The notes below the pieces were generated by a model. The model searched no databases and had not been told where the DNA came from. It saw only the letters and a list, made by a program, of their open reading frames with translations. DNA of 33,304 bases from Betaproteobacteria bacterium (GTDB taxonomy: Bacteria; Pseudomonadota; Gammaproteobacteria; Burkholderiales; Casimicrobiaceae), in assembly GCA_027492485.1 (NCBI GenBank), contig JAPUER010000082.1, forward strand, positions 1-33,304. Direction: 5' to 3'. Both the position numbers and the translations under genes were made by a program. This document shows, one piece after another, positions 3,771 through 25,252 of this stretch (positions within the stretch are counted from its first letter, which is position 1; every line of letters begins with the position of its first letter).

Positions 3771-3842
3771 GCCTTGACCTTGTGGGTTGATGCCCGGCTT
3801 GATGGCGGGGCGGGTGCCGGTTTTGTTGTTTTGAGTCATGTG

Positions 3843-3922
3843 CGTAGGGTGGGCAACTTGTCGCCCACGCGGAACACGGCGTCGATCGAGCGAACGCGTG
3901 GGCACGGGGTGCCCACCCTACG
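3843..3922. repeat. CGTAGGGTGGGCA inverted-repeat element
   Basis: Perfect 13-bp arms, CGTAGGGTGGGCA at 3843-3855 and TGCCCACCCTACG at 3910-3922, with a second nested CGCCCACGCG/CGCGTGGGC pair inside, give an 80-base imperfect hairpin. It fills most of the mnmG-rsmG gap. A single arm recurs at about 2968. It looks like a non-autonomous dispersed palindromic repeat. Confidence 0.8.
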
Positions 3923-3957
3923 AAGGCGATGCGGGGGAGGCAAGTCGATGCGCCCCA

Positions 3958-5979
3958 TCACGCGACGAACTCCGCCAACCGGCCTTTTTTCAGGTGCACC
4001 AGCAATAGCGAAATCGCTGCCGGCGTGATGCCCGAGATGCGCCCGGCTTGTCCGAGCGTTTCCGGGCGCTGGGCGGAGAGCTTGATTTGCACCTCTTTCG
4101 AGAGGCCGCGCACCTGGGTGTAGTCAAGGTCGGCGGGCAGACGCAGGTTTTCATTGGCAGCGTGGCGCTCAACCTCGTTCTGTTGACGCTCGATGTAACC
4201 CGCGTATTTGGCGGCGATTTCGACCTGTTCGGTGACGGATTCGTCGGGTATTGCTCCCTCCCCCAACGGGGGAGGGTTGGGGTGGGGGCAGGTCGCCTCC
4301 GAATCTAACCGTTCAGCGCCATTCATGTTCCCCCACCCCAGCCCTCCCCCGCTGGGGGAGGGAGTTGAATCGTTTTTCGCCTTCAACGCGAACTCCGCCC
4401 GCAACTCCGCAACCGCCGAATACGTCACCCCCGGTCGCCGCAGCAGATCGAACAGGTTGTATTCGCGCTCGATTGGCGTGCCGAGCAACTCGGTCGCACG
4501 GGTGGCGGACAGGATCGCCGGGTTCACCCAGGTCGATTTCAGCCGCTCTGTTTCACGTGAAACAGCATCGCGCTTGCGGTTGAAAGCGTCCCAGCGGGCG
4601 TCGTCAACCAGGCCCAGCGCCCTGCCCTGTTCGGTCAGTCGCATGTCGGCGTTGTCTTCGCGAAGTTGCAGCCGGTACTCGGCGCGGCTGGTGAACATGC
4701 GGTACGGCTCGGTCACGCCGCGCGTGATGAGGTCATCGACCAGCACGCCGAGATAGGCCTCGTCGCGGCGCGGACACCAACCGTCGCGGCCCTTCGCCTT
4801 CAGCGCGGCATTGACGCCGGCGAGCAGACCCTGCGCCGCCGCCTCCTCGTAACCGGTCGTGCCGTTGATCTGGCCGGCCATGAACAAGCCGTCGAGATAC
4901 TTGGTTTCGAGCGTCTGTTTGAGCTGGCGCGGATCAAAATAGTCGTACTCGATCGCGTAGCCGGGCCGCAGGATGTGAGCGTTCTCCAGCCCCGCCATCG
5001 AACGGATCAGCGCGAGCTGGATGTCGAACGGCAGGCTGGTCGAGACGCCGGCCGGGTAGATTTCGCTGGTGGTCAGCCCTTCCGGTTCGAGGAAGATCTG
5101 ATGGCTGTCCTTGTCGGCAAAGCGGTGGATCTTGTCCTCGATGCTCGGACAGTAGCGCGGGCCGACGCCCTCGATGACGCCGGTGAACATGGGGCTGCGG
5201 TCGAGCCCCGAGCGGATGATGTCGTGCGTCCGCGCATTGGTATGCGTGATCCAGCACGGTACCTGACGCGGGTGCAGCGCGCGGTCGCCCATGAAGCTGA
5301 ACACCGGCGCCGGATCGTCGCCGGGCTGCACGCCGACCTTCGAATAGTCGATGGTTTTGCCGTCGATGCGCGGCGGCGTACCGGTCTTCAACCGGCCTTG
5401 CGGCAGCTTCATCTCCTTGAGCCGGGCGCCGAGCGTCGTCGCCGCCGGGTCGCCGGCGCGGCCAGCGGTATAGTTTTCGAGCCCGATGTGGATCAGACCC
5501 GAGAGGAAGGTGCCAGCCGTCAGCACCACCGTCTCGCTCTCGAACTCCAAGCCCATTTGCGTCTTGACGCCGGTCACCCGATTTCCGGTCGTCAGCACGT
5601 CGTCGACCGGCTGCTGGAACAGCGTAAGGTTCGGCTGATTCTCGATGCGACGACGGATCGCGGCGCGGTAGAGCACGCGGTCGTTCTGGGCGCGCGTCGC
5701 GCGAACGGCTGGGCCCTTCGAGCCATTCAGGATGCGAAACTGGATGCCCGCCTCGTCGGTGGCAATCGCCATCGCGCCGCCCAAGGCGTCGACCTCCTTG
5801 ACCAGATGACCCTTGCCGATGCCGCCAATCGACGGATTGCAACTCATCTGGCCCAGCGTTTCGATGCTGTGCGTCAGCAGTAGCGTCCTGGCGCCGGCGC
5901 GCGCAGCCGCCAGCGCGGCCTCGCTGCCGGCGTGGCCGCCGCCGACGACGATCACATCAAAACGGTCGGGGTAGATCAT
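3958..5979 (-). CDS. mnmG: tRNA uridine-5-carboxymethylaminomethyl modification enzyme MnmG (GidA)
   Basis: MnmG with MnmE installs the cmnm5 group on the wobble uridine of certain tRNAs; it is an FAD/NADH-dependent cytosolic enzyme. The protein starts [20 protein letters not shown] with the FAD-binding GGGHAG motif. It carries [22 protein letters not shown], the GTPPRIDG and [16 protein letters not shown] segments, and the C-terminal helical domain ending [10 protein letters not shown]-like. At 673 residues it is about 40 longer than usual. Residues about 539-576 are a palindromic repeat (4253-4365) translated in frame as a Pro/Gly-rich linker before [14 protein letters not shown] perfect parS lies inside the gene and another just upstream of the start. 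Confidence 0.96.
4253..4365. repeat. Palindromic repeat inserted in frame in mnmG
   Basis: Outer arms of CTCCCTCCCCC...GGGGGAGGGAG type, each itself a hairpin (CTCCCCCAACGGGGGAG; CTCCCCCGCTGGGGGAG), flank a 40-base centre. The element is translated as [12 protein letters not shown] and [12 protein letters not shown]. It is the same family as the parA-parB gap element at 1076-1177. Confidence 0.8.
4549..4564. promoter_or_regulatory. parS centromere site inside mnmG
   Basis: TGTTTCACGTGAAACA, the full 16-bp palindromic parS consensus, lies within the mnmG coding sequence. It is the loading site for ParB encoded at 163-1059. Confidence 0.95.
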
Positions 5980-5999
5980 GAATTCAGCGAAACGGCCGA

Positions 6000-6015
6000 T
6001 GTTTCACGTGAAACA
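6000..6015. promoter_or_regulatory. parS centromere site upstream of mnmG
   Basis: This is a second perfect TGTTTCACGTGAAACA palindrome, 20 bases before the mnmG start codon and downstream of its candidate -10. ParB bound here would sit in the mnmG leader. Confidence 0.95.
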
Positions 6016-11157: not shown

Positions 11158-13524
11158 CTATCGCTTGAGCGCCGCAAAGGCAGCGGCCATCGCGCCCGCC
11201 GGGGCACGCGGCTCGCCGCGCTGACCTGCGCCCGGCCATGCGCGATCCGCCGGGCGCTGCTCAGCCGACGGACGCGGGCGCACCTCGGCGTCGAGCTTCA
11301 TGGTCAGCGCGATCCGCTTGCGCGCCACGTCCACCTCGACCACCTTGACCTTGACGATCTGCCCGGCCTTGACCACGTCCTTCGGGTCTTTCACGAACTT
11401 GTTGGCGAGCTGCGACACGTGCACCAGCCCGTCCTGATGCGCGCCGACGTCGACGAAAGCGCCGAAGGCGGCCACGTTGGTCACCGTGCCTTCGAGAATC
11501 ATGCCCTCGACCAGATCCTTGATGTCGTTGACGCCCTCGTTGAAGCGCGCCACCTTGAACTCGGGGCGCGGGTCGCGGCCCGGCTTCTCCAGTTCGGCGA
11601 GCACATCGCGCACCGTGATTTCGCCGACGCCATCGGCTGCAAACGCCGTGGCCGGCACCGTTTTCAGCGCGGCGCCGTTGCCGAGCAGCTCCGCCAGCGG
11701 CCGTTTCACGCGCTCGATGATCTTCTGCACCAGTGCATAGCTCTCCGGGTGCACGGCGCTGGCGTCGAGCGGATTGGCGCCGCCCTGAATGCGCAGAAAG
11801 CCCGCGCACTGCTCGAACGTCTTCGGCCCGATGCCCGATACCTTGCGGATGGCGTCGCGATCGGCAAAGGCGCCATGCTGCTCGCGATGCGCCACGATAT
11901 TGCGCGCGTTGCTCGCGCTCAGACCGGCGACGCGCGTCAGCAACGGCGCCGAGGCGAGATTCACGTCCACACCCACCGAGTTCACGCAATCCTCGACCAC
12001 GGCGTCGAGCTTCCTCGCCAGCAGCGATTGATTGACGTCGTGCTGATACTGGCCGACGCCGATCGATTTCGGGTCGATCTTCACCAGCTCCGCCAGCGGG
12101 TCTTGCAACCGCCGCGCAATGCTCACCGCACCGCGCAGACTGACGTCGAGATCGGGCAGCTCCTGTGATGCGTATTCGCTCGCCGAGTACACCGAGGCGC
12201 CCGCTTCGCTGACGACCACTTTGGTGACACCGGCGCCAAGTTGCCTGAGCAAATCCGCCGCCAGCTGATCCGTCTCGCGGCTCGCCGTGCCGTTGCCGAT
12301 CGCAATCAGTTGCACGCCATGCGTCTCGCACAGCTTGCGCAGCGTATGCAGCGAGCCGTCCCAATCCTTGCGCGGCTCGTGCGGATACACCGTGCTGGTC
12401 GCCACCACCTTGCCGGTCGCATCCACCACCGCCACCTTGACGCCGGTGCGGATGCCGGGGTCGAGCCCCATCACCACCTTGTTGCCGGCCGGCGCCGCCA
12501 GCAGCAAGTCGCGCACGTTGTCGCCGAACACCTTGATCGCCACCTCCTCGGCGCCCTCGCGCAGGCGGGCGAACAGATCGCGCTCTAGCGCCGGTGCCAG
12601 CTTCACTTTCCACGTCCAGCTCACCACCCGCTTCAGCCAGTCGTCCGCCGCACGCGCCTGATGCGACCATTGCACCTGGTTGGCGACCATGCCTTCGCAG
12701 ACGGAAAAAGGGGTGACCGTTCGCCCTGAGCCGGCAGGCGAAGGGTTTGATGTGCTGTGAGACCCTTCGCTGCGCTCAGGGCGAACGGGAACATTCGCCT
12801 CGGGCTGCACCAGCTTCACCGTCAGCACCTCCGCCAGCCACCCGCGAAACACCGCCAGTGCGCGATGCGAGGGCACCTTGCCGATCGGCTCGGCGTAGTC
12901 GAAGTAGTCGCGGAACTTGTCGCCGTCCTTCTCCTTGCCCTCCGCGACCTTGCTTTCGAACAGCCCGTTCGTCCACAGCCACTCGCGCAGCTTGCCAACC
13001 AGTGCGGCGTCTTCGGCCCACTGCTCGGAGAGGATGTCGCGCGCGCCGTCGAGGCAAGCCTGCGCTTCGGTAAAACCGGCGTCGGCATTCACAAACTTCG
13101 CCGCCTCAGCGAGCGGCGTCAACGTCGGAGCGGCGTACAGCGCATCGGCCAACGGCTGCAAGCCCGCCTCGCGTGCAATCTGCGCCTTGCTGCGTCGCTT
13201 CTGCTTGTACGGCGCGTAGAGGTCTTCGATCTCCTGCTTGGTCAGTGCGCGGTCCAGCGCCACCGCCAGTTCATCGCTCAATTTGCCCTGCTCGCGGATC
13301 GAGGCGAGCACCGCATCGCGCCGCTCGTCCAGCTCGCGCAGGTAGCCCAGGCGCTCGTCGAGAAAGCGCAATTGCACGTCATCCAGGCCATTGGTCGCCT
13401 CCTTGCGGTAGCGCGCAATGAACGGCACGGTAGCGCCGCCATCCAGTAATTCAACGGCCGCAGCGGCTTGTTTCGGGGCAATGGCAACGTCTCGCGCAAG
13501 ACGCGCGATCAGGGATTCAGGCAT
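11158..13524 (-). CDS. tex: Transcription accessory protein Tex (S1 RNA-binding)
   Basis: Tex is a conserved nucleic-acid-binding protein affecting transcription and stress or toxin expression. The 788-residue product has the N-terminal helical region (VPFIARYRKEATNGLDDVQLR), the YqgF/RNase H-like domain starting near 350 (VMGLDPGIRTGVKVAVVD), and a helix-hairpin-helix segment near 555-580 (VSGIGPKTFEQCAGFLRI). A C-terminal S1 domain follows (about 669-743, EGTVTNVAAFGAFVDVG...DGLVHVSQL), then a Pro/Arg/Ala tail. Residues about 245-270 are a REP-like element (12716-12792) translated in frame between conserved blocks. A minus-strand TACACT at 13559-13564 is a possible -10. The first 147 bases of the gene's 5' region are duplicated at 21802-21948. 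Confidence 0.95.
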   Translation of the reverse strand: MPESLIARLARDVAIAPKQAAAAVELLDGGATVPFIARYRKEATNGLDDVQLRFLDERLGYLRELDERRDAVLASIREQGKLSDELAVALDRALTKQEIEDLYAPYKQKRRSKAQIAREAGLQPLADALYAAPTLTPLAEAAKFVNADAGFTEAQACLDGARDILSEQWAEDAALVGKLREWLWTNGLFESKVAEGKEKDGDKFRDYFDYAEPIGKVPSHRALAVFRGWLAEVLTVKLVQPEANVPVRPERSEGSHSTSNPSPAGSGRTVTPFSVCEGMVANQVQWSHQARAADDWLKRVVSWTWKVKLAPALERDLFARLREGAEEVAIKVFGDNVRDLLLAAPAGNKVVMGLDPGIRTGVKVAVVDATGKVVATSTVYPHEPRKDWDGSLHTLRKLCETHGVQLIAIGNGTASRETDQLAADLLRQLGAGVTKVVVSEAGASVYSASEYASQELPDLDVSLRGAVSIARRLQDPLAELVKIDPKSIGVGQYQHDVNQSLLARKLDAVVEDCVNSVGVDVNLASAPLLTRVAGLSASNARNIVAHREQHGAFADRDAIRKVSGIGPKTFEQCAGFLRIQGGANPLDASAVHPESYALVQKIIERVKRPLAELLGNGAALKTVPATAFAADGVGEITVRDVLAELEKPGRDPRPEFKVARFNEGVNDIKDLVEGMILEGTVTNVAAFGAFVDVGAHQDGLVHVSQLANKFVKDPKDVVKAGQIVKVKVVEVDVARKRIALTMKLDAEVRPRPSAEQRPADRAWPGAGQRGEPRAPAGAMAAAFAALKR
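12716..12792. repeat. REP-like palindrome inserted in frame in tex
   Basis: Perfect 14-bp arms CCGTTCGCCCTGAG and CTCAGGGCGAACGG bracket GCGAAGGG and CCCTTCGC. The element is read through as VRPERSEGS-type residues. It is the same family as the insertion in the LysE gene. Confidence 0.85.
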
Positions 13525-13650
13525 CGGGAAATCGGCTCAATACTTCGGAAAGGCGCGCAGTGTAGCCGGTTGCCGGCGACGGCCGGTCGGCGCCGCCGAC
13601 GCGGCCGCCGCCGCTCGTTTCGCCGCAAGGCCACCGCAACCCGACACATC

Positions 13651-13761
13651 GGGTATGACCCGTAGCGCCGTCGTCAACGGCATCAACTTCGCGGCCAACG
13701 CCACCCGCAACACCTGGCCGCTGATCCGCGACTACTTGGTCAGCCAGTGCGGCATGGCGTG
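13651..13761 (+). pseudogene. Orphan 3' scrap of a delta-60/dockerin-like gene
   Basis: This fragment is nearly identical to the last 110 bases of the first array gene (15411 onward). It encodes SAVVNGINFAANATRNTWPL and YLVSQCGM, but there are no propeller repeats before it and the end runs into unrelated sequence. It is the remnant of an additional array member whose body has been deleted. The rest of the 13525-14023 gap holds the tex upstream region and about 260 bases in which I see no gene. Confidence 0.85.
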
Positions 13762-14023
13762 CGCGGTGCAACGTCTTTTCAGCCGAAACGTTATTCCGCC
13801 GCGGTTTGCAGCCCAAAAATCGGCAAGTCGACTTTCGATGTAATAGACCCCTGTGCCCCGTTTTTAGTGCGTTGTAGAAAAAAGCTATTGAGCCGACGCT
13901 CACTGTGGCGCCGCACTGGACGCGGCGGCCGGCGTGGTTTACCCTGCCGTTACGTCCTTGCTGGTGCCGTCCGGTTGCCGCCCGCCGTTTGCTGCCGCCG
14001 CGACCCGTTTGCTGGAGATTGCC

Positions 14024-15526
14024 ATGCCAAGCCTTCGCGCTCCCCGTTCCGGTCTCACCGCGCTGCGCGCCCTGCTTGCCTGCGTCGCCTGCATCGGCGT
14101 TGCCCATGCTGCGCCCGGCGATCTCGACCCCAGCTTCGGCTCCGGTTTCGGCAAGGTCATCACCGCGTTCGCCAGCAACAGTTCCGTCCGCGCACTTGCC
14201 GTGCAGCCCGACGGCAAACTGGTCGCCGCCGGTATCTGCGGGAGTGGCAGCAACACCGACGTCTGTCTCGCCCGCTACAACGCCGACGGCAGCCTCGACA
14301 CCGCCTTCGGCAGCGGCGGCACAGCGGTCACCGCGATCGGCAGCTTCGAAGACAACGCCCTTGCCCTCGTCCTGCAAGCGGACGGCAAGCTGGTCGTCGC
14401 CGGCTACTGCTCCAACGGCAGCAACCCGGACTTCTGTCTCGCCCGCTACCACACCAATGGCAGTCTCGACACCAGCTTCAACGGCAACGGCAAAGTCATC
14501 ACTGCGATCGGCAACAGCTACGACGTGGCCAATGCGCTCGTCGTACAACCCGACGGCAAGCTGGTTGCCGCCGGTAGCTGCCTGAACAGCAGCAGCAACT
14601 ATGACTTCTGCCTCGCCCGCTACAACAGCAACGGCAGCCTCGACGCCGCCTTCGGCACCGGCGGTACCGTCGTCACGCCGATCGGCAGCAGCGATGACCA
14701 GGCCTATGCTCTCGCCCTGCAACCCGACGGCAAGCTGGTCGTCGCCGGTACCTGCAACAACGGCGGCAACGACCCCTGCCTCGCCCGCTACAACGCCAAT
14801 GGCAGTCTCGACACCACCTTCAATCTCAGCGGCAAAGCGATCACCCCGATCGGCGGTAGCTTTAACGCCGTCCGGGCCCTTGCCGTGCAGCCCGACGGCA
14901 AGCTGGTCGTCGCCGGTTTCTGCCTCAACGTCGGCAACGCCGACTTCTGCCTCGTCCGCTATAACACCAACGGCAGCTTCGACAGCGCGTTCGGCAACAG
15001 CGGCAAAGTCCTCACCGCGATCGGCAATGGCGACGACTATGCCTATGCCCTCGCCCTGCAACCCGATGGCAGACTGATCGCCGCCGGCTACTGCTTGAAC
15101 GGCAGCAATTACGACTTCTGCCTTGCCCGCTACAACGCCGACGGCAGCCTCGACGCCAGCTTCAATACCAGCGGCAAAGTCCTCACCCCGATCGGCAGCG
15201 GTGACGACCGTGCCTTTGCCCTCGCCTTGCAGCCCGACGGCAAACTGGTTGCCGCCGGCGTCCGCATTGACGGCAGCAACAATGCCTTCGGCCTCGTCCG
15301 CTACGAGGGCGGCCCCTTTGGCTACCGCAGCTGTTCGCTGGACATCGACGGCGACAATCAGGTGCTCGCCACCACCGACATGCTGATCGGCGCACGGGTA
15401 GCGCTGGGCATGACCGGTAGCGCCGTCGTCAACGGCATCAACTTCGCGGCCAACGCCACCCGCAACACCTGGCCATTGATCCGCAGTTACCTGGTCAGCC
15501 AGTGCGGCATGGCGATCGCGCCGTAA
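14024..15526 (+). CDS. Exported seven-repeat delta-60 propeller protein, array member 1
   Basis: This 500-residue protein has a signal peptide (cleavage likely after VAHA, residue 29). Seven delta-60/DUF5122 repeats of about 57 residues follow. Their pattern is LDxxFxxxGKVxTxIG, then ALxxQPDGKLVxAGxC, then FCLARYNxNGS. Seven repeats suggest a closed seven-bladed beta-propeller. Most repeats carry two cysteines (AGxC and FCLARY), which could form an intrablade disulfide after export; the last repeat has lost both. Residues 436-500 are a dockerin-like module: LDIDGDNQVLATTDML Ca-type loop, a helix, and a closing QCGM. The ATG at 14024 has GGAG 7 bases upstream. It is first in a four-gene run. 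Ligand and role are unknown; an extracellular or surface binding protein is inferred. Confidence 0.85.
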   Translation: MPSLRAPRSGLTALRALLACVACIGVAHAAPGDLDPSFGSGFGKVITAFASNSSVRALAVQPDGKLVAAGICGSGSNTDVCLARYNADGSLDTAFGSGGTAVTAIGSFEDNALALVLQADGKLVVAGYCSNGSNPDFCLARYHTNGSLDTSFNGNGKVITAIGNSYDVANALVVQPDGKLVAAGSCLNSSSNYDFCLARYNSNGSLDAAFGTGGTVVTPIGSSDDQAYALALQPDGKLVVAGTCNNGGNDPCLARYNANGSLDTTFNLSGKAITPIGGSFNAVRALAVQPDGKLVVAGFCLNVGNADFCLVRYNTNGSFDSAFGNSGKVLTAIGNGDDYAYALALQPDGRLIAAGYCLNGSNYDFCLARYNADGSLDASFNTSGKVLTPIGSGDDRAFALALQPDGKLVAAGVRIDGSNNAFGLVRYEGGPFGYRSCSLDIDGDNQVLATTDMLIGARVALGMTGSAVVNGINFAANATRNTWPLIRSYLVSQCGMAIAP

Positions 15527-15540
15527 CGTCGGAGATTGCC

Positions 15541-17052
15541 ATGCCAAGCCTTCGCACTACCCGCCACCGCTTCGCTGCGCTGCGCGTCCTGCTTGCCTGC
15601 GTCGCCTGTATCGGCGTCGCCCACGCCGCGCCGGGCGATCTCGACCCCAGCTTCGGCGCCGCCGGCAAGGTCATCACAGCGATCGGCGCCACCAGCGACA
15701 CCGTCCGCGCCCTCGTCGTGCAGCCCGACGGCAAGCTGGTTGTTGCCGGCGTATGTCTCAGCGGCGGCAACGGCGTTTTCTGCCTCGCCCGCTACACCGC
15801 CGACGGCAGCCTCGACCCCGCCTTCGGCAGCGGCGGCAAAGTCATCACCTCGATCAGCAGCAACGGCGACAACACAGCCAGAGCCATCGCCCTGCAGCCC
15901 GACGGCAAACTGGTCGCAGCCGGCTACTGCTACAACGGCAGCAACGTCGACTTCTGCCTAGCGCGCTACAACACCAATGGCAGTCTCGACGCCTCCTTCG
16001 GCAACAACGGCACCGTCGTCACCGCGATCGGCAGCGGCGATGACAACGCCAACGCCCTCACCCTGCAGCCCGACGGCAAGTTGGTCGCCGCCGGTACCTG
16101 CGCCGCTGGCAGCAACACCAGCTTCTGCCTCGCCCGCTACAACGCCAACGGCAGCCTCGACACCAGCTTCAACGGCAGCGGCACCGTCGTCACCCCGGCC
16201 GGCAGCGGCTATGACTATGGCTATGCCCTCGCGGTGCAGGCCGACGGCAAACTGGTTGCCATCGGCTCTTGCTACAACGGCAGCAATTACGACTTCTGCC
16301 TCGTCCGCTACAACGCCAATGGTGGCCTTGACACCAGCTTCAACGGCAGCGGCAAAGTCGTCACCGTGATCGGCAGCAGCCATGACAATGCCTATGCCCT
16401 TGCCGTACAACCCGACCGCAAACTGGTAGTCGCCGGTGCCTGCTGGAACGGCAGCAATAACGACTTCTGCCTCGCCCGCTACAACGCCGACGGCAGCCTC
16501 GACACCGGCTTCAACGCAAGCGGCAAACTCATGACGCCGATTGGCAACGGTGCCGACTTTGCCTATGCCCTCGCCGTGCAGCCCGACGGCAAGCTGGTCG
16601 CCGCCGGTACCTGCCAGAACAGCGGCAACAACTACGACTTTTGCCTCGCCCGCTATAACGCCGACGGCAGCCTCGACGCCAGCCTCAACGCCAGCGGCAA
16701 ACTCATGGCGCCGATCGGCGCCGACTTTGACTTCGCCTATGCCCTCGCCCTGCAGCCCGACGGCAAGCTGGTCGCTGCCGGCGCCTGCGCCAACGGCAGC
16801 AACAACGCCAACTTCTGCCTTGCCCGCTACCAGGGTGGTCCGTTCGGCTATCAGAACTGCAAGCCGGACATCGACGGCGACGGCCGCAACACCGCGACCG
16901 TCGACGGCTTGATCTACATGCGGGTAATGCTGGGCCTCACCGGCAGCGCGGTGGTCAACGACATCAACTTCGCCGCCAACGCCTCCCGCAACACCTGGCC
17001 TGCGATCCGCAACTACCTGGTCAGCCAGTGCGGCATGGCGATCGCGCCGTAA
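15541..17052 (+). CDS. Exported seven-repeat delta-60 propeller protein, array member 2
   Basis: This 503-residue paralogue starts 14 bases after member 1 stops, with GGAG in the gap, so the two are likely one transcript. It has a signal peptide ending VAHA and seven delta-60 repeats with the cysteine pair in every blade. In blade five the consensus QPDGKL reads QPDRKL. The C-terminal module has the loop DIDGDGRNTATVDGL and ends QCGMAIAP. The upstream GTG at 15502 overlaps member 1 and is rejected because it would precede the signal peptide by 13 codons and lacks a ribosome site. Confidence 0.85.
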   Translation: MPSLRTTRHRFAALRVLLACVACIGVAHAAPGDLDPSFGAAGKVITAIGATSDTVRALVVQPDGKLVVAGVCLSGGNGVFCLARYTADGSLDPAFGSGGKVITSISSNGDNTARAIALQPDGKLVAAGYCYNGSNVDFCLARYNTNGSLDASFGNNGTVVTAIGSGDDNANALTLQPDGKLVAAGTCAAGSNTSFCLARYNANGSLDTSFNGSGTVVTPAGSGYDYGYALAVQADGKLVAIGSCYNGSNYDFCLVRYNANGGLDTSFNGSGKVVTVIGSSHDNAYALAVQPDRKLVVAGACWNGSNNDFCLARYNADGSLDTGFNASGKLMTPIGNGADFAYALAVQPDGKLVAAGTCQNSGNNYDFCLARYNADGSLDASLNASGKLMAPIGADFDFAYALALQPDGKLVAAGACANGSNNANFCLARYQGGPFGYQNCKPDIDGDGRNTATVDGLIYMRVMLGLTGSAVVNDINFAANASRNTWPAIRNYLVSQCGMAIAP

Positions 17053-17066
17053 CGCTGGAGATTGCC

Positions 17067-18569
17067 ATGCCAAGCCTTCGCACCGCCCGCTATCGCTTTG
17101 CCGCGCTGCGCAGCCTGCTCGCCGGCGTCGCCTGCATCGGCCTCGCCCACGCTGCGCCCGGCGATCTCGACCTCGCTTTCGGCTCCGCCGGCAAGCTCAT
17201 CACGACGATCGGCGGTGGCGGTGCTGTCCGCGCGCTTGCCGTGCAGCCCGACGGCAAGCTGGTCGCCGCCGGTGCCTGTCTCAACGGCGGCAGCAACGAC
17301 TTCTGCCTCGCCCGCTACAACGCCAATGGCAGCCCCGACACCACCTTCGGCAGCAGCGGCAAGGTGCTCACCGCGATCGGCAGCAATGACGACTCTGCCA
17401 ATACCCTCATGCTGCAGCCCGACGGCAAGCTGGTCGCCGCCGGCTACTGCTTGAACGGCAGCAGCTATGACTTCTGCCTCGCCCGTTACAACACCAACGG
17501 CAGCCTCGACCCCGCTTTCGGCACCGGCGGCAAGGTCGTCACCGCGATCGGCAGCGGCAATGACCTGGCCTACGCCCTCGCCCTGCAGCCCGACGGCAAG
17601 CTGGTCGCTGCCGGCAACTGCTACAACGCCAGCGGCACCGATTCCGACTTCTGCCTCGCGCGCTACCACGCCGATGGCAGCCTCGACCTCGCCTTCGGCA
17701 CCGGCGGCAAGGTCGTCACCCAGATCGGCAACAACAATGACAGTGCCTATGCCGTCGTCGTGCAACCCGACGGCAAGCTGGCCGCTGCCGGCACCTGCAT
17801 CACCGACAGCGGCTTTGCCTTCTGCCTCGCCCGCTACAACGCCAACGGCAGCCTCGACCCCACCTTCGGCATCGGCGGCAAAGTCGTCACCGCGATCAGC
17901 AGCTATAACAGCGCCTCGGCCCTTGCCGTGCAGCCAGACGGCAAGCTGGTCGCCGCCGGTGCCTGTTCCACCGGCAGTAACAGCGACTTCTGCCTCGCCC
18001 GTTACAACGCCGACGGCAGCCTCGACACCGGCTTCAACGGCAGCGGCAAAGTCGTCACCCCGATCGGCAGCAGCGACGACTACGCCTATGCCCTCGCCGT
18101 ACAGCCCGACGGCAGGCTGGTCGCCGCAGGCACCTGCGCCAGCAGCGGCAACTATGACTTTTGCCTCGCTCGCTACAACACCAATGGCAGCCTCGACACC
18201 GGCCTCAATATCACTGGCAAAGTCGTCACCCCAATCGGCAGCAGCCATGACCATGCCAATGCCCTCATGCTGCAACCCGACGGCAAGCTGGTCGCCGCCG
18301 GTGCCTGCGCCAATGGCAATAGCAGCGACTTCTGCCTCGCCCGCTACCAGGGCGGGCCGTTCGGCTACCGCAACTGCAAGCTCGACATCGACGGCGACAA
18401 TCGGGTACTCGCCACCACCGACTCGCTGATTCACCTGCGCATCGCCCTCGGCATCACCGGCAGCGCGGTGGTCAACGGCATCAGCTTCCCCGCCAACGCC
18501 ACCCGCACCACCTGGCCGCTGATTCGCAGCTATCTGGTCACCCAGTGCGGCATGGCGATCGCGCCGTAA
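17067..18569 (+). CDS. Exported seven-repeat delta-60 propeller protein, array member 3
   Basis: This 500-residue paralogue lies 14 bases after member 2, with the same GGAGATTGCC spacer. It has a signal peptide ending LAHA and seven repeats with paired cysteines. Blade three has a slightly longer cysteine loop (NCYNASGTDSDFC), and the dockerin-like module has the loop DIDGDNRVLATTDSL. The loop residues after AGxC and before DFC are the most variable part among paralogues, which would place diversity on one face of the propeller. Function is unknown. Confidence 0.85.
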   Translation: MPSLRTARYRFAALRSLLAGVACIGLAHAAPGDLDLAFGSAGKLITTIGGGGAVRALAVQPDGKLVAAGACLNGGSNDFCLARYNANGSPDTTFGSSGKVLTAIGSNDDSANTLMLQPDGKLVAAGYCLNGSSYDFCLARYNTNGSLDPAFGTGGKVVTAIGSGNDLAYALALQPDGKLVAAGNCYNASGTDSDFCLARYHADGSLDLAFGTGGKVVTQIGNNNDSAYAVVVQPDGKLAAAGTCITDSGFAFCLARYNANGSLDPTFGIGGKVVTAISSYNSASALAVQPDGKLVAAGACSTGSNSDFCLARYNADGSLDTGFNGSGKVVTPIGSSDDYAYALAVQPDGRLVAAGTCASSGNYDFCLARYNTNGSLDTGLNITGKVVTPIGSSHDHANALMLQPDGKLVAAGACANGNSSDFCLARYQGGPFGYRNCKLDIDGDNRVLATTDSLIHLRIALGITGSAVVNGISFPANATRTTWPLIRSYLVTQCGMAIAP

Positions 18570-18583
18570 CGCCGGAGATTGCC

Positions 18584-20095
18584 ATGCAAAGCCTTCGCAC
18601 CGCTCCCCACCGTTTCGCCGCGCTGTGCGCCCTGCTCGCCGGCGTCGTCGGCAGCGGCATCGGCATCGCCCACGCCGCGCCCGGCGATCTAGACGCCGGT
18701 TTCGGCGCCGGCTCAGGCAAGGTCACCACTGCGATCGGCACCGGCGGTGACTATGCCCGCGCGCTTGCCGTGCAGCCCGACGGCAAGCTGGTCGTCGCCG
18801 GCTACTGCAACAACGGCGGCAACAGCAGCTTCTGCCTCGCCCGCTATAACGCCGACGGCAGCCTCGACACCGGCTTCAACGGCAGCGGCAAAGTCGTCGC
18901 CCCGATCGGCACCGGCTTTGACTATGTCTATGCCCTCGCCCTGCAACCCGATGGCAAGCTGGTCGCCGCCGGCTCCTGCGCCAACAGCGGCAATCGCAGC
19001 TTCTGCCTCGCCCGCTACAACGCCGACGGCAACCTCGACACCGGCTTCAACGGCAGCGGCAAAGTCGTCACCCCGATCGGCAGCGGCGATGACTACGCCT
19101 ATGCCCTCGCCGTGCAACCCGACGGCAAGCTGGTCGCCGCCGGTACCTGCGCCAACGGCGGCCCCTATGACTTCTGCCTCGCCCGCTACAACACCAATGG
19201 CAGCCTCGACACCAGCTTCAACGGCAGCGGCAAAGTCATCACCTCGATCGGCAGCGGCGACGACAACGCCTACGCCCTTGCCGTACAACCCGACGGCAAG
19301 CTGGCCGTCGCCGGTACCTGCTCCAACGGCGGTAACAGCGACTTCTGCCTCGCCCGCTACAACAACGACGGCAGCCTCGACACCAGCTTCAACGGCAGCG
19401 GCAAAGTCATCACCTCGATCGGCAGCGGCAGTGACTATGCCGTCGCCCTCGCCCTGCAACCCGATGGCAAGCTGGTCGCCACGGGCGGCTGCGGGAACGG
19501 CCTCAGCGCCGACTTCTGTCTCGCCCGCCACAACACCGACGGCAGCCTCGACAACAGCTTCAACGGCAGCGGCAAAGTCGTCACCTCGATCGGCAACGGC
19601 GTTGCCGATGCCAAAACCCTCGCCCTGCAGCCCGACGGCAAGCTGGTCGTCGCCGGTGTCTGCGCCACCGGCAGTAACCACGACTTCTGCCTCACCCGCT
19701 ACAACGCCGACGGCAGCCTCGACACCGCCTTCAACGGCAGCGGCGTAGTCGTCACTCCGGTCGGCAGCAACGGTGGATTGGCCCATGCCCTCGCCCTGCA
19801 ACCCGACGGCAAGCTGGTCGCCGCCGGCTACTGTCGCAACGGCACCGAAGATGACTTCTGCCTTGCCCGCTACGAGGGTGGGCCGTTCGGCTACCAGAAC
19901 TGCTCGCTCGACATCGACGGCGACAATCAGGTGCTCGCCGCCACCGACTCGCTGATTCACGCGCGCATCGCCCTCGGGCTGACCGGCAACGCCGTCGTCA
20001 ACGGCATCAGCTTCCCCGTCAACGCCACCCGCACCACTTGGCCGCTGATCCGAAACTACTTGGTCAGCCAGTGCGGCATGTCGTTGGTGCCGTAA
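18584..20095 (+). CDS. Exported seven-repeat delta-60 propeller protein, array member 4
   Basis: This 503-residue paralogue is last of the tight run. Its signal peptide is a few residues longer (GVVGSGIGIAHA). Its blades are the most homogeneous of the set: four consecutive repeats contain LDTxFNGSGKVxT, suggesting recent internal duplication or conversion. All seven blades keep the paired cysteines, and the C-terminal loop is DIDGDNQVLAATDSL. The end reads QCGMSLVP, matching member 5 rather than members 1-3. The 159 bases that follow hold no clear terminator. Confidence 0.85.
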   Translation: MQSLRTAPHRFAALCALLAGVVGSGIGIAHAAPGDLDAGFGAGSGKVTTAIGTGGDYARALAVQPDGKLVVAGYCNNGGNSSFCLARYNADGSLDTGFNGSGKVVAPIGTGFDYVYALALQPDGKLVAAGSCANSGNRSFCLARYNADGNLDTGFNGSGKVVTPIGSGDDYAYALAVQPDGKLVAAGTCANGGPYDFCLARYNTNGSLDTSFNGSGKVITSIGSGDDNAYALAVQPDGKLAVAGTCSNGGNSDFCLARYNNDGSLDTSFNGSGKVITSIGSGSDYAVALALQPDGKLVATGGCGNGLSADFCLARHNTDGSLDNSFNGSGKVVTSIGNGVADAKTLALQPDGKLVVAGVCATGSNHDFCLTRYNADGSLDTAFNGSGVVVTPVGSNGGLAHALALQPDGKLVAAGYCRNGTEDDFCLARYEGGPFGYQNCSLDIDGDNQVLAATDSLIHARIALGLTGNAVVNGISFPVNATRTTWPLIRNYLVSQCGMSLVP

Positions 20096-20254
20096 GCGCG
20101 CAAACCTGCTCCTGCAGCGCACACTTTCGTGCCGAGTCGATAGTCGCCGGGACGATTCTTTGCATCGAGGCCGTGCGCGAGATTTATTCGTCCTATCATT
20201 AGACGATGCACCTGCGGCGTTCCGGCGCCGCGCTACACACCACGAGGGGTCACG

Positions 20255-21790
20255 ATGTTCTCAGCCACCGACACGCCACGACCATTTCACGGCGTTACTG
20301 TTCGCCGTCGGCGCCGTGCTGGCGCACTGCTCACCGCGTTCGCCACCGTATTGGCGATCATCGTCGCGCCCGCAAGCCACGCCGTCCCCGGCCAACCGGG
20401 CACGCTGGACACCACCTGGGCCACCACCGGAAAACTGATGTCGCCGATCGGCACCGGCGAGGACCGCGCCAACGCCCTCGCGGTGCAACCCGACGGCAAA
20501 GTCGTGGTCGCGGGAACCTGCCACAACGGTAGCAACAACGACTTCTGCCTCGCTCGCTACAACGTCAATGGCGTGCTCGACACCACCTTTGGCAACGGCG
20601 GTAAAGTCATCACCGATTTCAGCTCCGGCGAGGACTACACCGAGGACGACGCCACTGCCATTGCCTTGCAGCCCGACGGCAAGATCGTGGTGGCGGGCTC
20701 GTGCTTCCTCTACAGCCTCGAGTTCTGTCTCGCCCGCTACAGCGCCAACGGCGCGCTCGACGCCACCTTTGGCGATGGCGGTACGCTCATCAGCTTCATC
20801 ACCCCCGTCAGTGACAACGCCGCGGCCCTCGCCATACAACCCGACGGCAAAATCGTCATGGCAGGTTATTGCCCGGACGTCTTCTGCCTCGCGCGCTACG
20901 ATGCCAGTGGCGTGCTCGACACCACCTTTGGCAGCGGCGGCATCGTGTTCACCGATATGAGCATCTACGAGGACGAAGCCCGCGCGCTCGCCCTGCAACC
21001 CGACGGCAAAATCGTCGTGGCAGGTTCTTGTCTGGCCTCGGACGCCTTCTGCGTCGCGCGCTACGCTGCCAATGGCGTGCTCGATGCCACCTTTGGCAGC
21101 GGCGGCACAGTGGTCACCAACTTCGGCTCAACCAACGGCCGTGCCCTCGCCCTGCAACCCGATGGCAAGATCGTCGTGGCGGGAGAGTGCTACACCGGCA
21201 AGTGGGACATCTGCCTCGTCCGCTACAGTCCGAACGGCGTGCTCGACGCGAGCTTTGGCAGCAGCGGCAAAGTCGTCACCGCCATCGGCACAGACGCCAG
21301 CTACATCGGCGGGCTCGCCCTGCAACCCGATGGCCGGATCGTCGTGGCGGGCTACTGCTACAACGGCAGCAACAATGACTTCTGCCTCGCGCGTTACGTG
21401 TCCAGCGGCGCGCTCGACGCGAGCTTTGGCAGCAGCGGCAAAGTCATCACCGCCATCGGCACCGGTGCAGACGTCGCCACTGCCGTCGCGCTGCAACGCG
21501 ATGGCAAAATCGTCGTGGCAGGGTATTGCGACAACGGCAGCAACAAGGACTTCTGCGTCGCCCGCTACGACGGTGGGCCGTTCGAAACCCGCAACTGCTC
21601 GATGGATATCGACGGCGACGGCGTGGTGCTTGCCACCACCGATGCCCTCATCCTCGCTCGCGTGAGCCTCGGCCTCAGCGGCAATGCCGTCATCGGCGGC
21701 ATCACGTTTGCCGCCCACGCCAGTCGCCCAACCTGGGCTGACATCCGCACCTACCTTGTCGCCCAGTGCGGTATGTCGCTGGTGCCGTAA
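20255..21790 (+). CDS. Exported seven-repeat delta-60 propeller protein, member 5 (diverged)
   Basis: This 511-residue protein begins MFSATDTPRPFHGV with a long basic n-region (RRRRRAG) before the signal-peptide core and SHA cleavage. It has seven delta-60 repeats with consensus LDxTFGxGGxV and DGKIVVAG. It keeps the cysteine pair in every blade, though blade three has a shortened loop (GYCPDVFC). It ends in a dockerin-like module (MDIDGDGVVLATTDAL ... QCGMSLVP). The ATG has GAGGGG upstream. Its own 159-base upstream region, and blades clearly distinct from members 1-4, indicate an older paralogue with its own promoter. A weak TTGCAT / TTTATT pair (20160, 20183) is possible. Confidence 0.85.
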   Translation: MFSATDTPRPFHGVTVRRRRRAGALLTAFATVLAIIVAPASHAVPGQPGTLDTTWATTGKLMSPIGTGEDRANALAVQPDGKVVVAGTCHNGSNNDFCLARYNVNGVLDTTFGNGGKVITDFSSGEDYTEDDATAIALQPDGKIVVAGSCFLYSLEFCLARYSANGALDATFGDGGTLISFITPVSDNAAALAIQPDGKIVMAGYCPDVFCLARYDASGVLDTTFGSGGIVFTDMSIYEDEARALALQPDGKIVVAGSCLASDAFCVARYAANGVLDATFGSGGTVVTNFGSTNGRALALQPDGKIVVAGECYTGKWDICLVRYSPNGVLDASFGSSGKVVTAIGTDASYIGGLALQPDGRIVVAGYCYNGSNNDFCLARYVSSGALDASFGSSGKVITAIGTGADVATAVALQRDGKIVVAGYCDNGSNKDFCVARYDGGPFETRNCSMDIDGDGVVLATTDALILARVSLGLSGNAVIGGITFAAHASRPTWADIRTYLVAQCGMSLVP

Positions 21791-21801
21791 GCGCGCACTA
21801 C

Positions 21802-21948
21802 ACGGCACGATAGCTCCGCCGTCCAGCAACTCAACGGCCGCTGCGGTCTGTTGCGGAGCAATAGCAACGTCTCGCGCAAGACGCACGAGCGTCGATTCAG
21901 GTATCGGGGAATCGAATCGTTACTTCGGGAAGGCGCGCGGCACAGCCT
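21802..21948 (-). pseudogene. Truncated duplicate of tex 5' end
   Basis: This stretch aligns without gaps to 13422-13569, the first 35 or so codons of tex plus its leader, at roughly 80% identity by eye. It encodes RLARDVAIAPQQTAAAVELL in the same strand and frame, but the start codon position is ATA and the coding part stops abruptly next to member 5's stop codon. It forms a direct repeat with the intact tex end, bracketing array members 1-5. The remaining bases to 22174 hold no visible gene. Confidence 0.88.
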
Positions 21949-22174
21949 TTCTTTTCAAGGCCCGAGACGTTCGGTGCATCGCAAATCCGGGCAATCAGTG
22001 AGCGTCAGCATTGACTGTGGGCAATCGTAACGGTCGCAACAAATCCGCAGCAAGGTTGCACCGCAGGATCTGCATTCGACGTTACTGCAGCATCGAGACT
22101 ACACTGGCGACGTCGAGCAACCGTGCTCCGCAATGATCTTTTAATCGGCACGAACTGAGTTTTCGAGGCTCCGT

Positions 22175-23932
22175 TTGCTCAAATTACCAATCGTCTTTAG
22201 TGCACTTGCCGCTATGACCGGCGCTTTCGCCGCGCCGAGCGATCTCGATGCGAGCTTCGGAACGGCTGGGATCGTGACCACCGTAGTAAGCTCCAGCAAC
22301 ACCATCAAGGCACTCTCGTTGCAAGCTGACGGCAAAATTATCGCGGCCGGTGACTGCTCGAACGCTAACAAAGCTGGTTACGACATTTGCGTTGTTCGCT
22401 ACCAAAAAGACGGCGCGCTTGATACCAGCTTCAACGGTACCGGCAAGGTGATCTTCACGACCACCGCAATCTACAACGTCGCGGCTACCCTGGTCCTGCA
22501 ACCCGACGGAAAAATACTGGTGGGCGGGAATTGCACTGACGGCATCGGTAGCACCCTCTGCTTGATCCGCATTCTCGAAAATGGTTCGTTCGACACCAGC
22601 TTCAACGAAACTGGCAACGTGATCGACAAAACCAGCGCCGCCTCTGGCATTGCCCTGCAATCCGATGGCCGGATCGTTGCAGCAGGGGCTTGTCCCTACG
22701 GTACCAGCAACGCCTTTTGCGTCGCTCGCTTCACGCCCGACGGGGCACTGGATAGAACCTTCAGCGCCATCGGCAAGGTGATCACGCCCGTCAGCGCTGG
22801 TAACAATCGTGCCACCACAATCGCGCTTCAACCTGATGGCAAGATCGTGCTGGCAGGCTACTGCGCCAACGGCAGTAGCATTGACTTTTGCCTTGCCCGC
22901 TACCTGCCCGACGGAACACTGGATGCCAGCTTCAATAGCACGGGAACGGTAGTCACGCCGGTGGGGCGTGGTAGTGATCTTGTCTCCGCCGTGAGAATAC
23001 AACCAGATGGCAAGATAGTGGTTGTGGGTACCTGTTCCGACGGCAATGTGGCAAGGTTCTGTCTGGCGCGTTTTCAAACTAGCGGGGCACTGGATACCAG
23101 CTTCGGCGGCACCGGCACCCAGATCACGCCGATCAGCGGTGGCTTCCACGATTACGCTGGCGCCATCGCCCTGCAACCAGATGGCAAGATCATCGTGGCT
23201 GGCAACTGCGATGGCAAGTTCTGCGTCGCCCGCTTCCAGCTCAACGGCGCGCCAGATACCACTTTTAGCAGTGCCGGATCGGCGATCACCACGGTCAGTG
23301 CCTATAGCGAATCAGTCACCGCGCTCGCCTTACAACCGGACGGAAAGTTCATTGTGGCCGGTAGCGGCCGATATAGCGGCGGGAATTCGTTCGCACTCGC
23401 CCGTTACCTCGGCGGCCCCAACTCGCCGAAGACTCTCACCGAGTACGTCTACAACCCACTGAGCTACTACTTCCTGACATCACGCGATGCCGACAAAGCA
23501 GCGCTTGACGCAGCGCCGGGCTGGGCGCGTACCGGGCAATCGTTCTCGTCCCAGACGTTCGCGGAGCCCGGCGCGCTCGGCATCAGCCGCTTCTATTTCG
23601 ACAAGATCGCGAAGAACCAGACGCGCGGCAGCCATTTCTACACATTGGTGGATAGCGAGAAAACGGCACTCAATGCGCTGAATCCAGCCAATCAAGCGTT
23701 ACCACGACTACCTTTCAACGAGGGCGTTGATTCCTATGCGTTTCCGCCGGTTGTAGAGGGTGTGGGCGGAAATTGCACGGCGGCGCAGACACCGGTGTAC
23801 CGTGCGTTTCGCGGTCAAGCCCGCTTCCCGGATGACCCGAATCATCGCTTCACCACCAGCCTCTCCCTCTACAACCAACTGGTTGCGCAAGGCTGGGACG
23901 GTGAGGGCGTAAAGATGTGCGTGCCGAATTAG
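22175..23932 (+). CDS. Exported delta-60 propeller protein with DUF5648-like C-terminus, member 6
   Basis: This 585-residue protein starts at TTG with GAGG 5 bases upstream. The signal peptide is MLKLPIVFSALAAMTGAFAA. Seven delta-60 repeats follow (to about 420), more diverged than the others; several blades keep the cysteine pair, others lack one or both. Instead of the dockerin-like module it ends in a DUF5648-like domain (about 421-585): LTEYVYNPLSYYFLTSR, ARTGQSF, RFYFDK, SHFYT, VYRAFRG, NHRFTTSLSLYNQLVAQGWDGEG. The same domain is N-terminal in the gene at 9829. The gene stops 9 bases before the end of the convergent mscS-type gene. A secreted role is inferred; function is unknown. Confidence 0.85.
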   Translation: MLKLPIVFSALAAMTGAFAAPSDLDASFGTAGIVTTVVSSSNTIKALSLQADGKIIAAGDCSNANKAGYDICVVRYQKDGALDTSFNGTGKVIFTTTAIYNVAATLVLQPDGKILVGGNCTDGIGSTLCLIRILENGSFDTSFNETGNVIDKTSAASGIALQSDGRIVAAGACPYGTSNAFCVARFTPDGALDRTFSAIGKVITPVSAGNNRATTIALQPDGKIVLAGYCANGSSIDFCLARYLPDGTLDASFNSTGTVVTPVGRGSDLVSAVRIQPDGKIVVVGTCSDGNVARFCLARFQTSGALDTSFGGTGTQITPISGGFHDYAGAIALQPDGKIIVAGNCDGKFCVARFQLNGAPDTTFSSAGSAITTVSAYSESVTALALQPDGKFIVAGSGRYSGGNSFALARYLGGPNSPKTLTEYVYNPLSYYFLTSRDADKAALDAAPGWARTGQSFSSQTFAEPGALGISRFYFDKIAKNQTRGSHFYTLVDSEKTALNALNPANQALPRLPFNEGVDSYAFPPVVEGVGGNCTAAQTPVYRAFRGQARFPDDPNHRFTTSLSLYNQLVAQGWDGEGVKMCVPN

Positions 23933-23941
23933 CAACCGGCA

Positions 23942-25252
23942 TCACGCCCCAGCAACAGCCGCCTTCACCGTCGCCGCATCGACGCCGGCCTCGTTCACCA
24001 CCCGCACCACGCGCTGCGGGAAGGGCACGCTGATGCCCTCGGCCTGAAACGCTTTCCAGATGGCGAGGTTGATCTCGGAACGCACGTTGTTGATGCCGTT
24101 CTCCGGGTCGGCGATCCAGTAGCCGAGCGTCAGCTCCAGACCGTCGGCGGCGAAATCAGTCAGCATCGCGCCCGGCGCCGGATCCTTCAGCACGCGCGGT
24201 TGCGCCTGCGCCGCCGCGATCATCAGGGCGCGCGCGCGATCGACGTCGCTCGAGTAGTCGATCTGCAATTTGGTGTTGAAGGCAACGCGCTTGTTCTCCA
24301 GCGAGAGGTTCTCGACGCGATTGACCATGAACATCTCGTTCGGCACCACCGACTCGCGACCGTTGGCGGCGCGCACCACCGAGTAGCGAGCGTGGATGTT
24401 GGTGATCTGCCCTTCGAAGTTGTCGATCTTCACGCTGTCGCCGACGCGAAAGCTGCGCTCCAGCAACATGGCAAAACCGCCCACGTAATTTGCCGCGATC
24501 TTCTGCAGACCCAGCCCCAGCCCGACGCCCAGCGCGCCACCGAACACCGACAGCACGGTGAGATCGATGCCCACCGCGGTCAGCGCAATCAACAGCGCCA
24601 GCACGAACAAGCCGGCGCGCAACAGCCGCGTCAGCACCAGCCGCAGACTCATGTCGATGTGGGTGGCCATCAGCCGCGTTTCCAGCGTCGCCGACAGCCA
24701 GAGCGCGCCGAGCAGCGTCACCGCCACCAGCCCGAGCCCCTGCAACATGGTCAGCGCCGACACCTGGGTTTTGCCGATCGGCAGGCGGAATGCTTCCAGC
24801 TCCGCTTCGATTTCCGGCAGCACGCCCGCCATGTGCATGACCACCGCCAGCCACACCAGCACGCTGACGCTGTTGATGACGGCGCGCACCGGCGACGAAT
24901 TCGGGAACAGGCCGCGCAGCAGCTGCGCCACCGCGCGCACCACCGTCAGCGACGCAAACACCGGCACTGCCAGCTTGGGCAGCATGCCGCTCGCCGCGCC
25001 GTAGGCGGTCAGGCGAAACAGCAGCAACAGCCCGCACGTCACCAGCGGAAAAGTGAGCCCGTACCAGAGCGCATGCTTCAGCGCGCCAATGCCCGGCTTG
25101 CGCGCCCGCGGATCGCGCTCGCGGCGGCGGCTGACCCACACGCCGGCGAGCACACCGATGGCCATCGCCAGCAGCACTACGGCGATGTGCTCGACATCGA
25201 CGCGATCCAGATCCTCGAATTCGGCGAGCAGTTGCTGAAAGGGTGATGTCAT
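23942..25252 (-). CDS. MscS-family mechanosensitive ion channel
   Basis: This 436-residue inner-membrane protein has several N-terminal spans, then the MscS core: the pore-lining Gly/Ala-rich helix LGVGLGLGLQKIAANYVGGF, and the beta domain start LLERSFRVGDSVKIDNFEGQITNIHARYSVVR with NGRESVVPNE. A C-terminal alpha/beta domain follows. Such channels release solutes on hypo-osmotic shock. The ATG at 25252 (MTSPFQQLL) is chosen over a 68-codon upstream extension of non-conserved sequence. It lacks a ribosome site, and a CATAAT hexamer lies 6 bases before it, suggesting a leaderless transcript. It is convergent with the member 6 propeller gene. Confidence 0.92.
   Translation of the reverse strand: MTSPFQQLLAEFEDLDRVDVEHIAVVLLAMAIGVLAGVWVSRRRERDPRARKPGIGALKHALWYGLTFPLVTCGLLLLFRLTAYGAASGMLPKLAVPVFASLTVVRAVAQLLRGLFPNSSPVRAVINSVSVLVWLAVVMHMAGVLPEIEAELEAFRLPIGKTQVSALTMLQGLGLVAVTLLGALWLSATLETRLMATHIDMSLRLVLTRLLRAGLFVLALLIALTAVGIDLTVLSVFGGALGVGLGLGLQKIAANYVGGFAMLLERSFRVGDSVKIDNFEGQITNIHARYSVVRAANGRESVVPNEMFMVNRVENLSLENKRVAFNTKLQIDYSSDVDRARALMIAAAQAQPRVLKDPAPGAMLTDFAADGLELTLGYWIADPENGINNVRSEINLAIWKAFQAEGISVPFPQRVVRVVNEAGVDAATVKAAVAGA

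What the first reader, a model, noticed from the sequence alone, without database searches (positions are those of the whole stretch)
14024..23932. Array of six exported seven-repeat delta-60 proteins with swappable C-terminal modules
Six adjacent genes each encode signal peptide + seven delta-60 (DUF5122) repeats + a C-terminal module. Five modules are dockerin-like single Ca-loop domains (LDIDGD...TD, closing QCGM) and one is DUF5648-like. Four are head-to-tail with 14-nt gaps and a 1.52-kb period. Seven repeats suggest beta-propellers. A shared C-terminal module suggests attachment to a common surface or secretion partner, as dockerins bind cohesins. This would be an expandable surface-propeller system; the partner and ligand are inference.
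Basis: partly seen in the sequence, partly recalled or inferred. Interest (0 to 1): 0.8.

Follow-up and report, generated by a model that had tools for sequence, protein, structure and literature searches.

The report
Dockerin-like tags on secreted beta-propellers
Six neighbouring genes encode exported propeller-shaped proteins, five of which end in a calcium-loop tag that the same bacterium also puts on dozens of other, mostly exported-looking proteins, and a possibly cohesin-like protein of the same genome is a candidate, untested partner for that tag.

Summary
In detail: six adjacent genes (14024-23932, +), each with a signal peptide and seven delta-60 repeats; four lie head to tail with 14-nt gaps. 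AlphaFold2 closes d4 into seven four-stranded blades. The larger finding lies outside the window. The C-terminal module of d1-d5 is a genome-wide tag: 42 intact own-genome ORFs end in it (16 delta-60, 26 others: proteases, Kelch, RCC1, LamG and more). It is in 17 of 17 genomes of the genus but 1 of 47 others of the family. It is a remote dockerin: below Pfam's cut-off, 13-residue loop in 37 of 42, yet homologous to Pfam-recognised long-spaced dockerins (hhalign 99.1%). Window proteins carry one unit, half a dockerin. A genus-restricted secreted protein with a sub-threshold cohesin-like domain ends in the long tag in 5 orthologues and in a short dockerin in 6; an IPTL-CTERM-like gene follows it in the 6 loci read of 11. 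I read this as a non-cellulosomal, dockerin-type surface assembly. Tag family and propellers are well supported; the partner is inference.

The parts
13652..13775 (+). decayed C-terminal module, remnant of a further array copy
   Evidence: A1 match 13652-13765, E 2.7e-19; DNA 90% identical to the end of d1 over 125 columns
14024..15526 (+). d1: signal peptide + 7 delta-60 blades + single-unit tag
15308..15523 (+). tag module of d1
   Evidence: A1 match E 8.5e-46
15541..17052 (+). d2: same architecture, 14 nt after d1
16834..17049 (+). tag module of d2
17067..18569 (+). d3: same architecture, 14 nt after d2
18351..18566 (+). tag module of d3
18584..20095 (+). d4: same architecture, 14 nt after d3; modelled (7 blades x 4 strands, low-confidence linker, helical tag)
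19877..20092 (+). tag module of d4
20255..21790 (+). d5: same architecture, more diverged (54-55% to d1-d4)
21572..21787 (+). tag module of d5
22175..23932 (+). d6: signal peptide + 7 delta-60 blades + DUF5648 instead of the tag

Best explanation
The six genes encode exported seven-bladed propellers. Five end in a Ca-loop tag, a half-dockerin, which belongs to a nearly genus-specific dockerin-like tag family found on about 43 proteins of this genome. I propose that the tag works as dockerins do: after Sec export (and probably T2SS) it docks the propeller, through a flexible linker, onto a cohesin-like receptor at the cell surface. The candidate receptor set is the conserved gene pair 'secreted, possibly cohesin-like adaptor ending in a dockerin' plus 'long protein with an IPTL-CTERM-like anchor'. 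Tandem duplication of the propeller+tag unit at the tex-mscS site adds new propellers to the same scaffold. Shown: genes, repeats, tag family, distribution, remote homology to dockerins, conserved adaptor-anchor gene pair. Predicted: folds. Inferred: Ca binding, docking, surface location, ligand.
Against: No cohesin over the cut-off in 17 of 17 genus genomes. The adaptor's cohesin call is sub-threshold: no cohesin match at E 1 in 9 of 9 whole adaptors scanned, none at E 10 in 3 of 4 adaptor domains, the own one included; its 11-row profile finds no cohesin in the PDB and hhalign against three distant cohesins gives prob 8% (E 0.0041, 35 columns). Adaptor not found in 6 of 17 genus genomes that carry 10-84 tag matches. 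The anchor's N-terminal domain has no cohesin match. With the 13-row tandem profile the best PDB hits are calmodulins (E 0.0012), with 1ohz at 0.0061, so part of the signal is the shared EF loop. Window tags have one Ca loop, not two. IPTL-CTERM cut-off is met by 1 of 3 tested, the other two just below.
Confidence: 0.45

Rival explanations
1. The tag is a calcium-stabilised cap or folding/export aid (for example for T2SS substrates), with no dedicated partner; its spread is by domain shuffling within one genus.
For: Single and tandem forms both occur; in the delta-60 tags an invariant Cys before the loop and one in the final QCG could close the unit; own genome has two secretins over the GspD cut-off; no cohesin over the cut-off; adaptor not found in 6 of 17 genus genomes.
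Against: Three proteins carry the tandem unit near the N-terminus, soon after the signal peptide (L115, L137; own L166), which suits a binding module better than a C-terminal cap. It does not explain the adaptor-anchor gene pair or the exchange of short dockerin and long tag.
Confidence: 0.3
2. The tag is a sorting signal read by a processing enzyme (sortase-like or exosortase-like), removed after transport.
For: Near-constant distance of the terminal loop from the stop, 53-63 residues in 36 of 42 (one at 70, five not parsed by the pattern); many unrelated passengers.
Against: No C-terminal transmembrane helix and basic tail in the tags as read; placement near the N-terminus in three proteins; a helical domain predicted at pLDDT 93.
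Confidence: 0.1
3. The tag binds an envelope polymer or matrix polysaccharide directly rather than a protein.
For: Near genus restriction would fit a genus-specific polymer; no confident protein receptor.
Against: Homology to dockerins, known (recalled) as protein-binding modules. No link to polysaccharide genes was looked for.
Confidence: 0.15

Closest known systems
Dockerin type I (Pfam PF00404) / cellulosomal dockerins
   Same: Ca loop followed by a helix (D-x-D-x-D...TDGLLxLR); usual C-terminal place; tandem form has two such units; homology through long-spaced Pfam dockerins
   Different: Below the Pfam cut-off; 13-residue loop in 37 of 42; about 60 residues per unit with further helices; one unit only in window proteins; no cellulase match among 37 of 42 tagged proteins scanned
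Planctosome, proposed for freshwater Planctomycetes (PMC6461901, passages read)
   Same: non-cellulosomal cohesin/dockerin, peptidases carrying dockerins, adaptor with both domains, envelope anchor
   Different: other phylum; the passages name cohesins outright; they mention no propeller array and no genome-wide tag
Saccharophagus degradans 2-40 (PMC2386152, passages read)
   Same: Gram-negative with dockerin-like and distant cohesin-like modules and no classical cellulosome
   Different: two dockerin-like and six cohesin-like ORFs only
delta-60 / DUF5122 repeat proteins (PF17164, TIGR02608)
   Same: repeats far over both cut-offs in 6 of 6 genes
   Different: Cys pair in the blades, tag at the C-terminus, tandem gene array
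PEP-CTERM, IPTL-CTERM and T9SS C-terminal sorting signals (recalled)
   Same: one C-terminal signature shared by many exported proteins
   Different: no TM-basic tail on the tags; Ca-loop helical domain; can be near the N-terminus

Membership tests
delta-60 / DUF5122 proteins | repeats over the curated cut-off | tested here: met
   PF17164 235-270 bits (cut-off 27) and TIGR02608 315-418 bits (cut-off 76.5) in 6 of 6
seven-bladed beta-propeller | seven four-stranded blades closing in a ring | tested here: inconclusive
   prediction for d4 only: 28 strands, pLDDT 92.8, pTM 0.83; 293 PDB matches at E 0.001 or less; no experimental structure, other five not folded
Dockerin_1 (PF00404) | profile score over the gathering cut-off | tested here: not met
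   not listed for d1-d5 at E 1; 18.0 and 17.3 bits for L087 tandem and L196 against 22.9; own genome searched in six frames: 1 match, under the cut-off
Dockerin_1 (PF00404) | two Ca-loop/helix repeats | tested here: not met
   one unit in d1-d5 of the window; two units in 23 of 42 own tagged proteins by the criterion
Dockerin_1 (PF00404) | 12-residue EF-type loop | tested here: not met
   13 residues from first to closing Asp in 37 of 42, 12 in 1, 9 in 1, 3 not parsed
Dockerin_1 (PF00404) | dockerin fold | tested here: inconclusive
Dockerin_1 (PF00404) | homology to accepted members | tested here: met
   hhalign prob 99.1, E 6.4e-19 to 15 long-spaced dockerins over the cut-off; only 15% to 8 short ones
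Dockerin_1 (PF00404) | Ca-dependent binding to a cohesin | not testable with these tools
   needs protein binding assays
Cohesin (PF00963), for the adaptor | profile score over the gathering cut-off | tested here: not met
   best 17.6 bits against 24.1, coverage 3-132/139, in 1 of 4 domains tested; 0 of 17 genus genomes over the cut-off
Cohesin (PF00963), for the adaptor | cohesin jelly-roll fold | not tested
Cellulosome | multi-cohesin scaffoldin with dockerin-bearing glycoside hydrolases | tested here: not met
   no cohesin over the cut-off; no cellulase family among Pfam matches of 37 of 42 tagged proteins (the other 5 are delta-60 proteins)
IPTL-CTERM, for the anchor gene | TIGR04174 over the curated cut-off | tested here: inconclusive
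   23.7, 20.3 and 20.1 bits against 20.5 in three orthologues; Pfam 19.8 against 20.8 in the own one; other three read by eye

The most novel reading that the evidence does not exclude
A Gram-negative, non-cellulosomal surface-assembly system nearly confined to one genus of uncultured Burkholderiales: a long-form dockerin on some 10 to 100 proteins per genome docks proteases, lectin-like domains and an expandable set of beta-propellers onto a diverged cohesin-like adaptor. The adaptor's own ending has been exchanged between a short dockerin and a long tag among species, as a second, self-avoiding binding type that joins it to an IPTL-CTERM-like anchored neighbour.
Probability: 0.33. Interest if true: 0.87.

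Novelty: new variant of a known kind. Interest (0 to 1): 0.72.

Why it matters
Cohesin-dockerin pairs are known mainly from cellulosomes (recalled). Here a genus outside that setting puts a diverged dockerin on dozens of unrelated, mostly exported-looking proteins, which asks how Gram-negative bacteria build extracellular protein assemblies and gives a concrete candidate receptor to test. It also gives a possible context to delta-60 proteins, which Pfam lists as of unknown function.

Tried and rejected
Considered and rejected: (1) Module unique to the array: refuted. (2) Standard Pfam dockerin: not over the cut-off. (3) Giant tagged protein L087/L153 (2413-aa frame, transglutaminase and Ig-like matches) as a scaffoldin: no cohesin match at E 0.001 (read). 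(4) T2SS cluster as the fixed neighbour of the adaptor: gspD lies about 10 kb upstream here and gspDEF-like genes are close in G015, but G012 has an isc-like cluster there (names from reading, except GspD). (5) Cohesin-like domain in the anchor's N-terminus: no cohesin match in 6 of 6, hhalign 0.1%. (6) Long antisense ORFs over the array: taken as composition artefacts, since the + frames carry the families. (7) Literature: the listings showed no paper that joins these tags or delta-60 repeats with dockerins; that is a reading of capped listings (searches list 15, 15 and 12 of 59, 24 and 64 papers), not of texts. Two papers were opened, passages only (PMC2386152, PMC6461901). VIA rows do not exclude other folds. 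A phmmer of one Pfam cohesin (L207) against the PDB found nothing, so one search's blank is a weak negative.

Weak points of method: the Sec-signal test is my own heuristic. A laxer first form took the best Met within 450 residues and is not used for counts; the strict form misses frames whose start lies far inside. Tag counts of the genome search are capped per genome (95 or 101 scored), so the highest are lower bounds. The module tree has 67 columns for 110 rows and 63 of 106 inner branches are open. The blade-position ratios rest on few sites.
Full report
OBSERVATION. ORF listing and reading give d1 14024-15526, d2 15541-17052, d3 17067-18569, d4 18584-20095, d5 20255-21790 and d6 22175-23932, all on the + strand. 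The d1-d4 gaps are 14 nt and d1-d4 share the start context GGAGATTGCC-ATG. Pfam finds seven DUF5122 stretches in 6 of 6 and NCBIfam seven or eight delta-60 stretches in 6 of 6. d6 alone ends in DUF5648. The six d1-d4 pairs have dS 0.29-0.41 and dN/dS 0.51-0.78: real, fairly fast diverging genes. In d1-d5 each blade carries two Cys, 5-11 and mostly 9 residues apart, except the last blade of d1, and the module has one Cys before the Ca loop and one in QCG, consistent with disulfides in an exported protein (inference).

FOLD. A model of d4 on a 43-row alignment has mean pLDDT 92.8 and pTM 0.83, with 28 strands in seven sets of four, then a low-confidence linker (about residues 401-410), then the helical tag. 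Foldseek against the PDB gives 293 matches at E 0.001 or less; the best are CylK entries at 1.9e-19, then a lyase of Fusarium and Sqt1 (that these are propellers is recalled). The propeller reading is thus supported by prediction, for one of six proteins.

THE TAG IS GENOME-WIDE. A profile of the five window modules finds 68 matches at E 1 or less in the own genome. I fetched the surrounding regions and searched their frames at E 0.01: 45 ORFs match, of which three are fragments (a contig-cut gene at the end of C6, one on C66, and the remnant in the window), leaving 42. In all 42 the module is the last domain. 16 of the 42 are delta-60 proteins and 26 are not. The others include two subtilases, an M36, an M10 and an M12B-like protease, a beta-lactamase-fold enzyme, a glucose/sorbosone dehydrogenase-like protein, Kelch and RCC1 propellers, LamG, RHS and transglutaminase-like proteins; 37 of 42 were scanned with Pfam, and seven of those had no match at the threshold used. 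One more own protein, L166, carries the tandem module near its N-terminus, soon after the signal peptide, as do L115 and L137 in relatives. By a strict heuristic 26 of 42 have a Sec-type signal, against 17 of 100 other gene-like frames; several of the other 16 have a plausible signal further inside the frame. 23 of 42 have two units in tandem by the criterion; the window proteins have one.

DISTRIBUTION. With the 42-row profile A3, 17 of 17 genomes of the genus match, with 10 to at least 95 places each, against 1 of 47 other genomes of the family (one place, in a 68% complete genome), and 3 of 368 non-own genomes of a class-wide sample, where the unit is again tandem and C-terminal in the three ORFs read. 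Delta-60 matches in the same 17 genomes range from 0 to at least 99. So the tag is the constant and the propeller is one passenger. The named contigs with close relatives are all titled Burkholderiales, Betaproteobacteria or Pseudomonadota MAGs (45 loci). I could not name the genus.

A CANDIDATE PARTNER. No cohesin exceeds Pfam's cut-off in 17 of 17 genus genomes. Two sub-threshold matches there (16.6 and 13.3 bits) proved to be orthologues, 54-57% identical, of an own protein, L071/L196: signal peptide, a domain of about 200 residues, then a tandem tag. The domain alone, from G008, has one Pfam match at E 10 or less, Cohesin, 17.6 bits, over 3-132 of 139 positions; the domains of the own protein, L199 and L203 have none, nine whole adaptors show none at E 1, the PDB profile search finds no cohesin and hhalign to three cohesins gives 8%. 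So 'cohesin-like' is a lead, not a finding. The family is in 11 of 17 genus genomes and 0 of 47 others of the family. Among the 11, 5 end in the long tag and 6 in a short dockerin; Dockerin_1 is over the cut-off in 5 of those 6. One orthologous gene thus carries either form, which is the best evidence that the long tag stands in for a dockerin. In 9 of 11 loci a tagged gene lies just upstream. In 6 of 6 loci read, of the 11, the next gene is a long protein ending in an IPTL-CTERM-like tail; the own one has a Calx-beta match over the cut-off, and of three tested with TIGR04174 one is over the cut-off and two just under. In G516, of another Pseudomonadota family, a Pfam cohesin (22.7 bits, 25.5 with its neighbours, cut-off 24.1) on a 1869-aa frame ending in a hydrophobic, basic tail lies beside two ORFs ending in long dockerins, one by Pfam and one by reading.

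ARRAY DYNAMICS. The array sits between a tex-like and an mscS-like gene (names recalled from sequence). The same site holds 2 delta-60 genes in G005 and none in G015, where delta-60 genes lie on the far side of mscS; two other loci show at least one next to tex, with mscS not in reach. The remnant upstream of d1 is 90% identical in DNA to the end of d1. On a tree of 110 modules (67 columns, weakly resolved) the delta-60 label needs 9 changes against 33.7 in shuffles, and starred branches force 2: passengers and tags mostly travel together, with few swaps.

MECHANISM. I propose Sec export, probably T2SS passage (GspD is present), Ca-dependent folding of the tag, and docking on a cohesin-like adaptor held at the surface by the IPTL-CTERM-like neighbour; tandem duplication supplies new propellers. 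Shown: genes, repeats, tag family, distribution, gene pair. Predicted: folds. Inferred: calcium, docking, surface, ligand.

KNOWN PRECEDENTS. Passages of PMC2386152 report two dockerin-like and six distant cohesin-like ORFs in Saccharophagus; passages of PMC6461901 propose a 'planctosome' of cohesin, dockerin and peptidases in Planctomycetes. The present case is a variant of that kind, larger in scale, with a diverged tag, in a Gram-negative genus.

Noticed in passing
window 13652-13775 (+): Decayed copy of the tag, 90% identical in DNA to the end of d1, between tex and d1.
   Followed up: yes
G000 C6:27675 end and C66:1 start (L061, L069): Assembly breaks inside delta-60 genes, so the delta-60 copy number of the genome may be underestimated; the pieces were not joined.
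   Followed up: no
window 22001-24000: GC is 0.586 over d6 against 0.64-0.67 for the rest of the array, and d6 has DUF5648 instead of the tag: perhaps of other origin.
   Followed up: no
window 14024-20092, blade turn after S-L-D-T: In d1-d4 the turn around F-[NG] of the blades shows more non-synonymous than synonymous change (ratio 3.9 and 2.2 in two 3-residue bins): possible diversifying selection, few sites.
   Followed up: partly
L210 (G516 C19:66000-80500): Two long-dockerin ORFs followed by a cohesin-bearing ORF with a C-terminal hydrophobic, basic tail in another Pseudomonadota family.
   Followed up: partly
L153 7383-14621 (-): 2413-aa frame with transglutaminase-like, LVIVD and Ig-like matches ending in a tandem tag; frames of 2390-2460 aa with the tag occur in G005, G012 and G015.
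   Followed up: partly
window 166-6003 (-): ParB-, ParA- and MnmG-like genes by reading (not scanned), suggesting that the array is near the replication origin.
   Followed up: no
window 13517-20122 (-): Antisense ORFs of 371-676 aa over the array, read as composition artefacts of the repeats.
   Followed up: no
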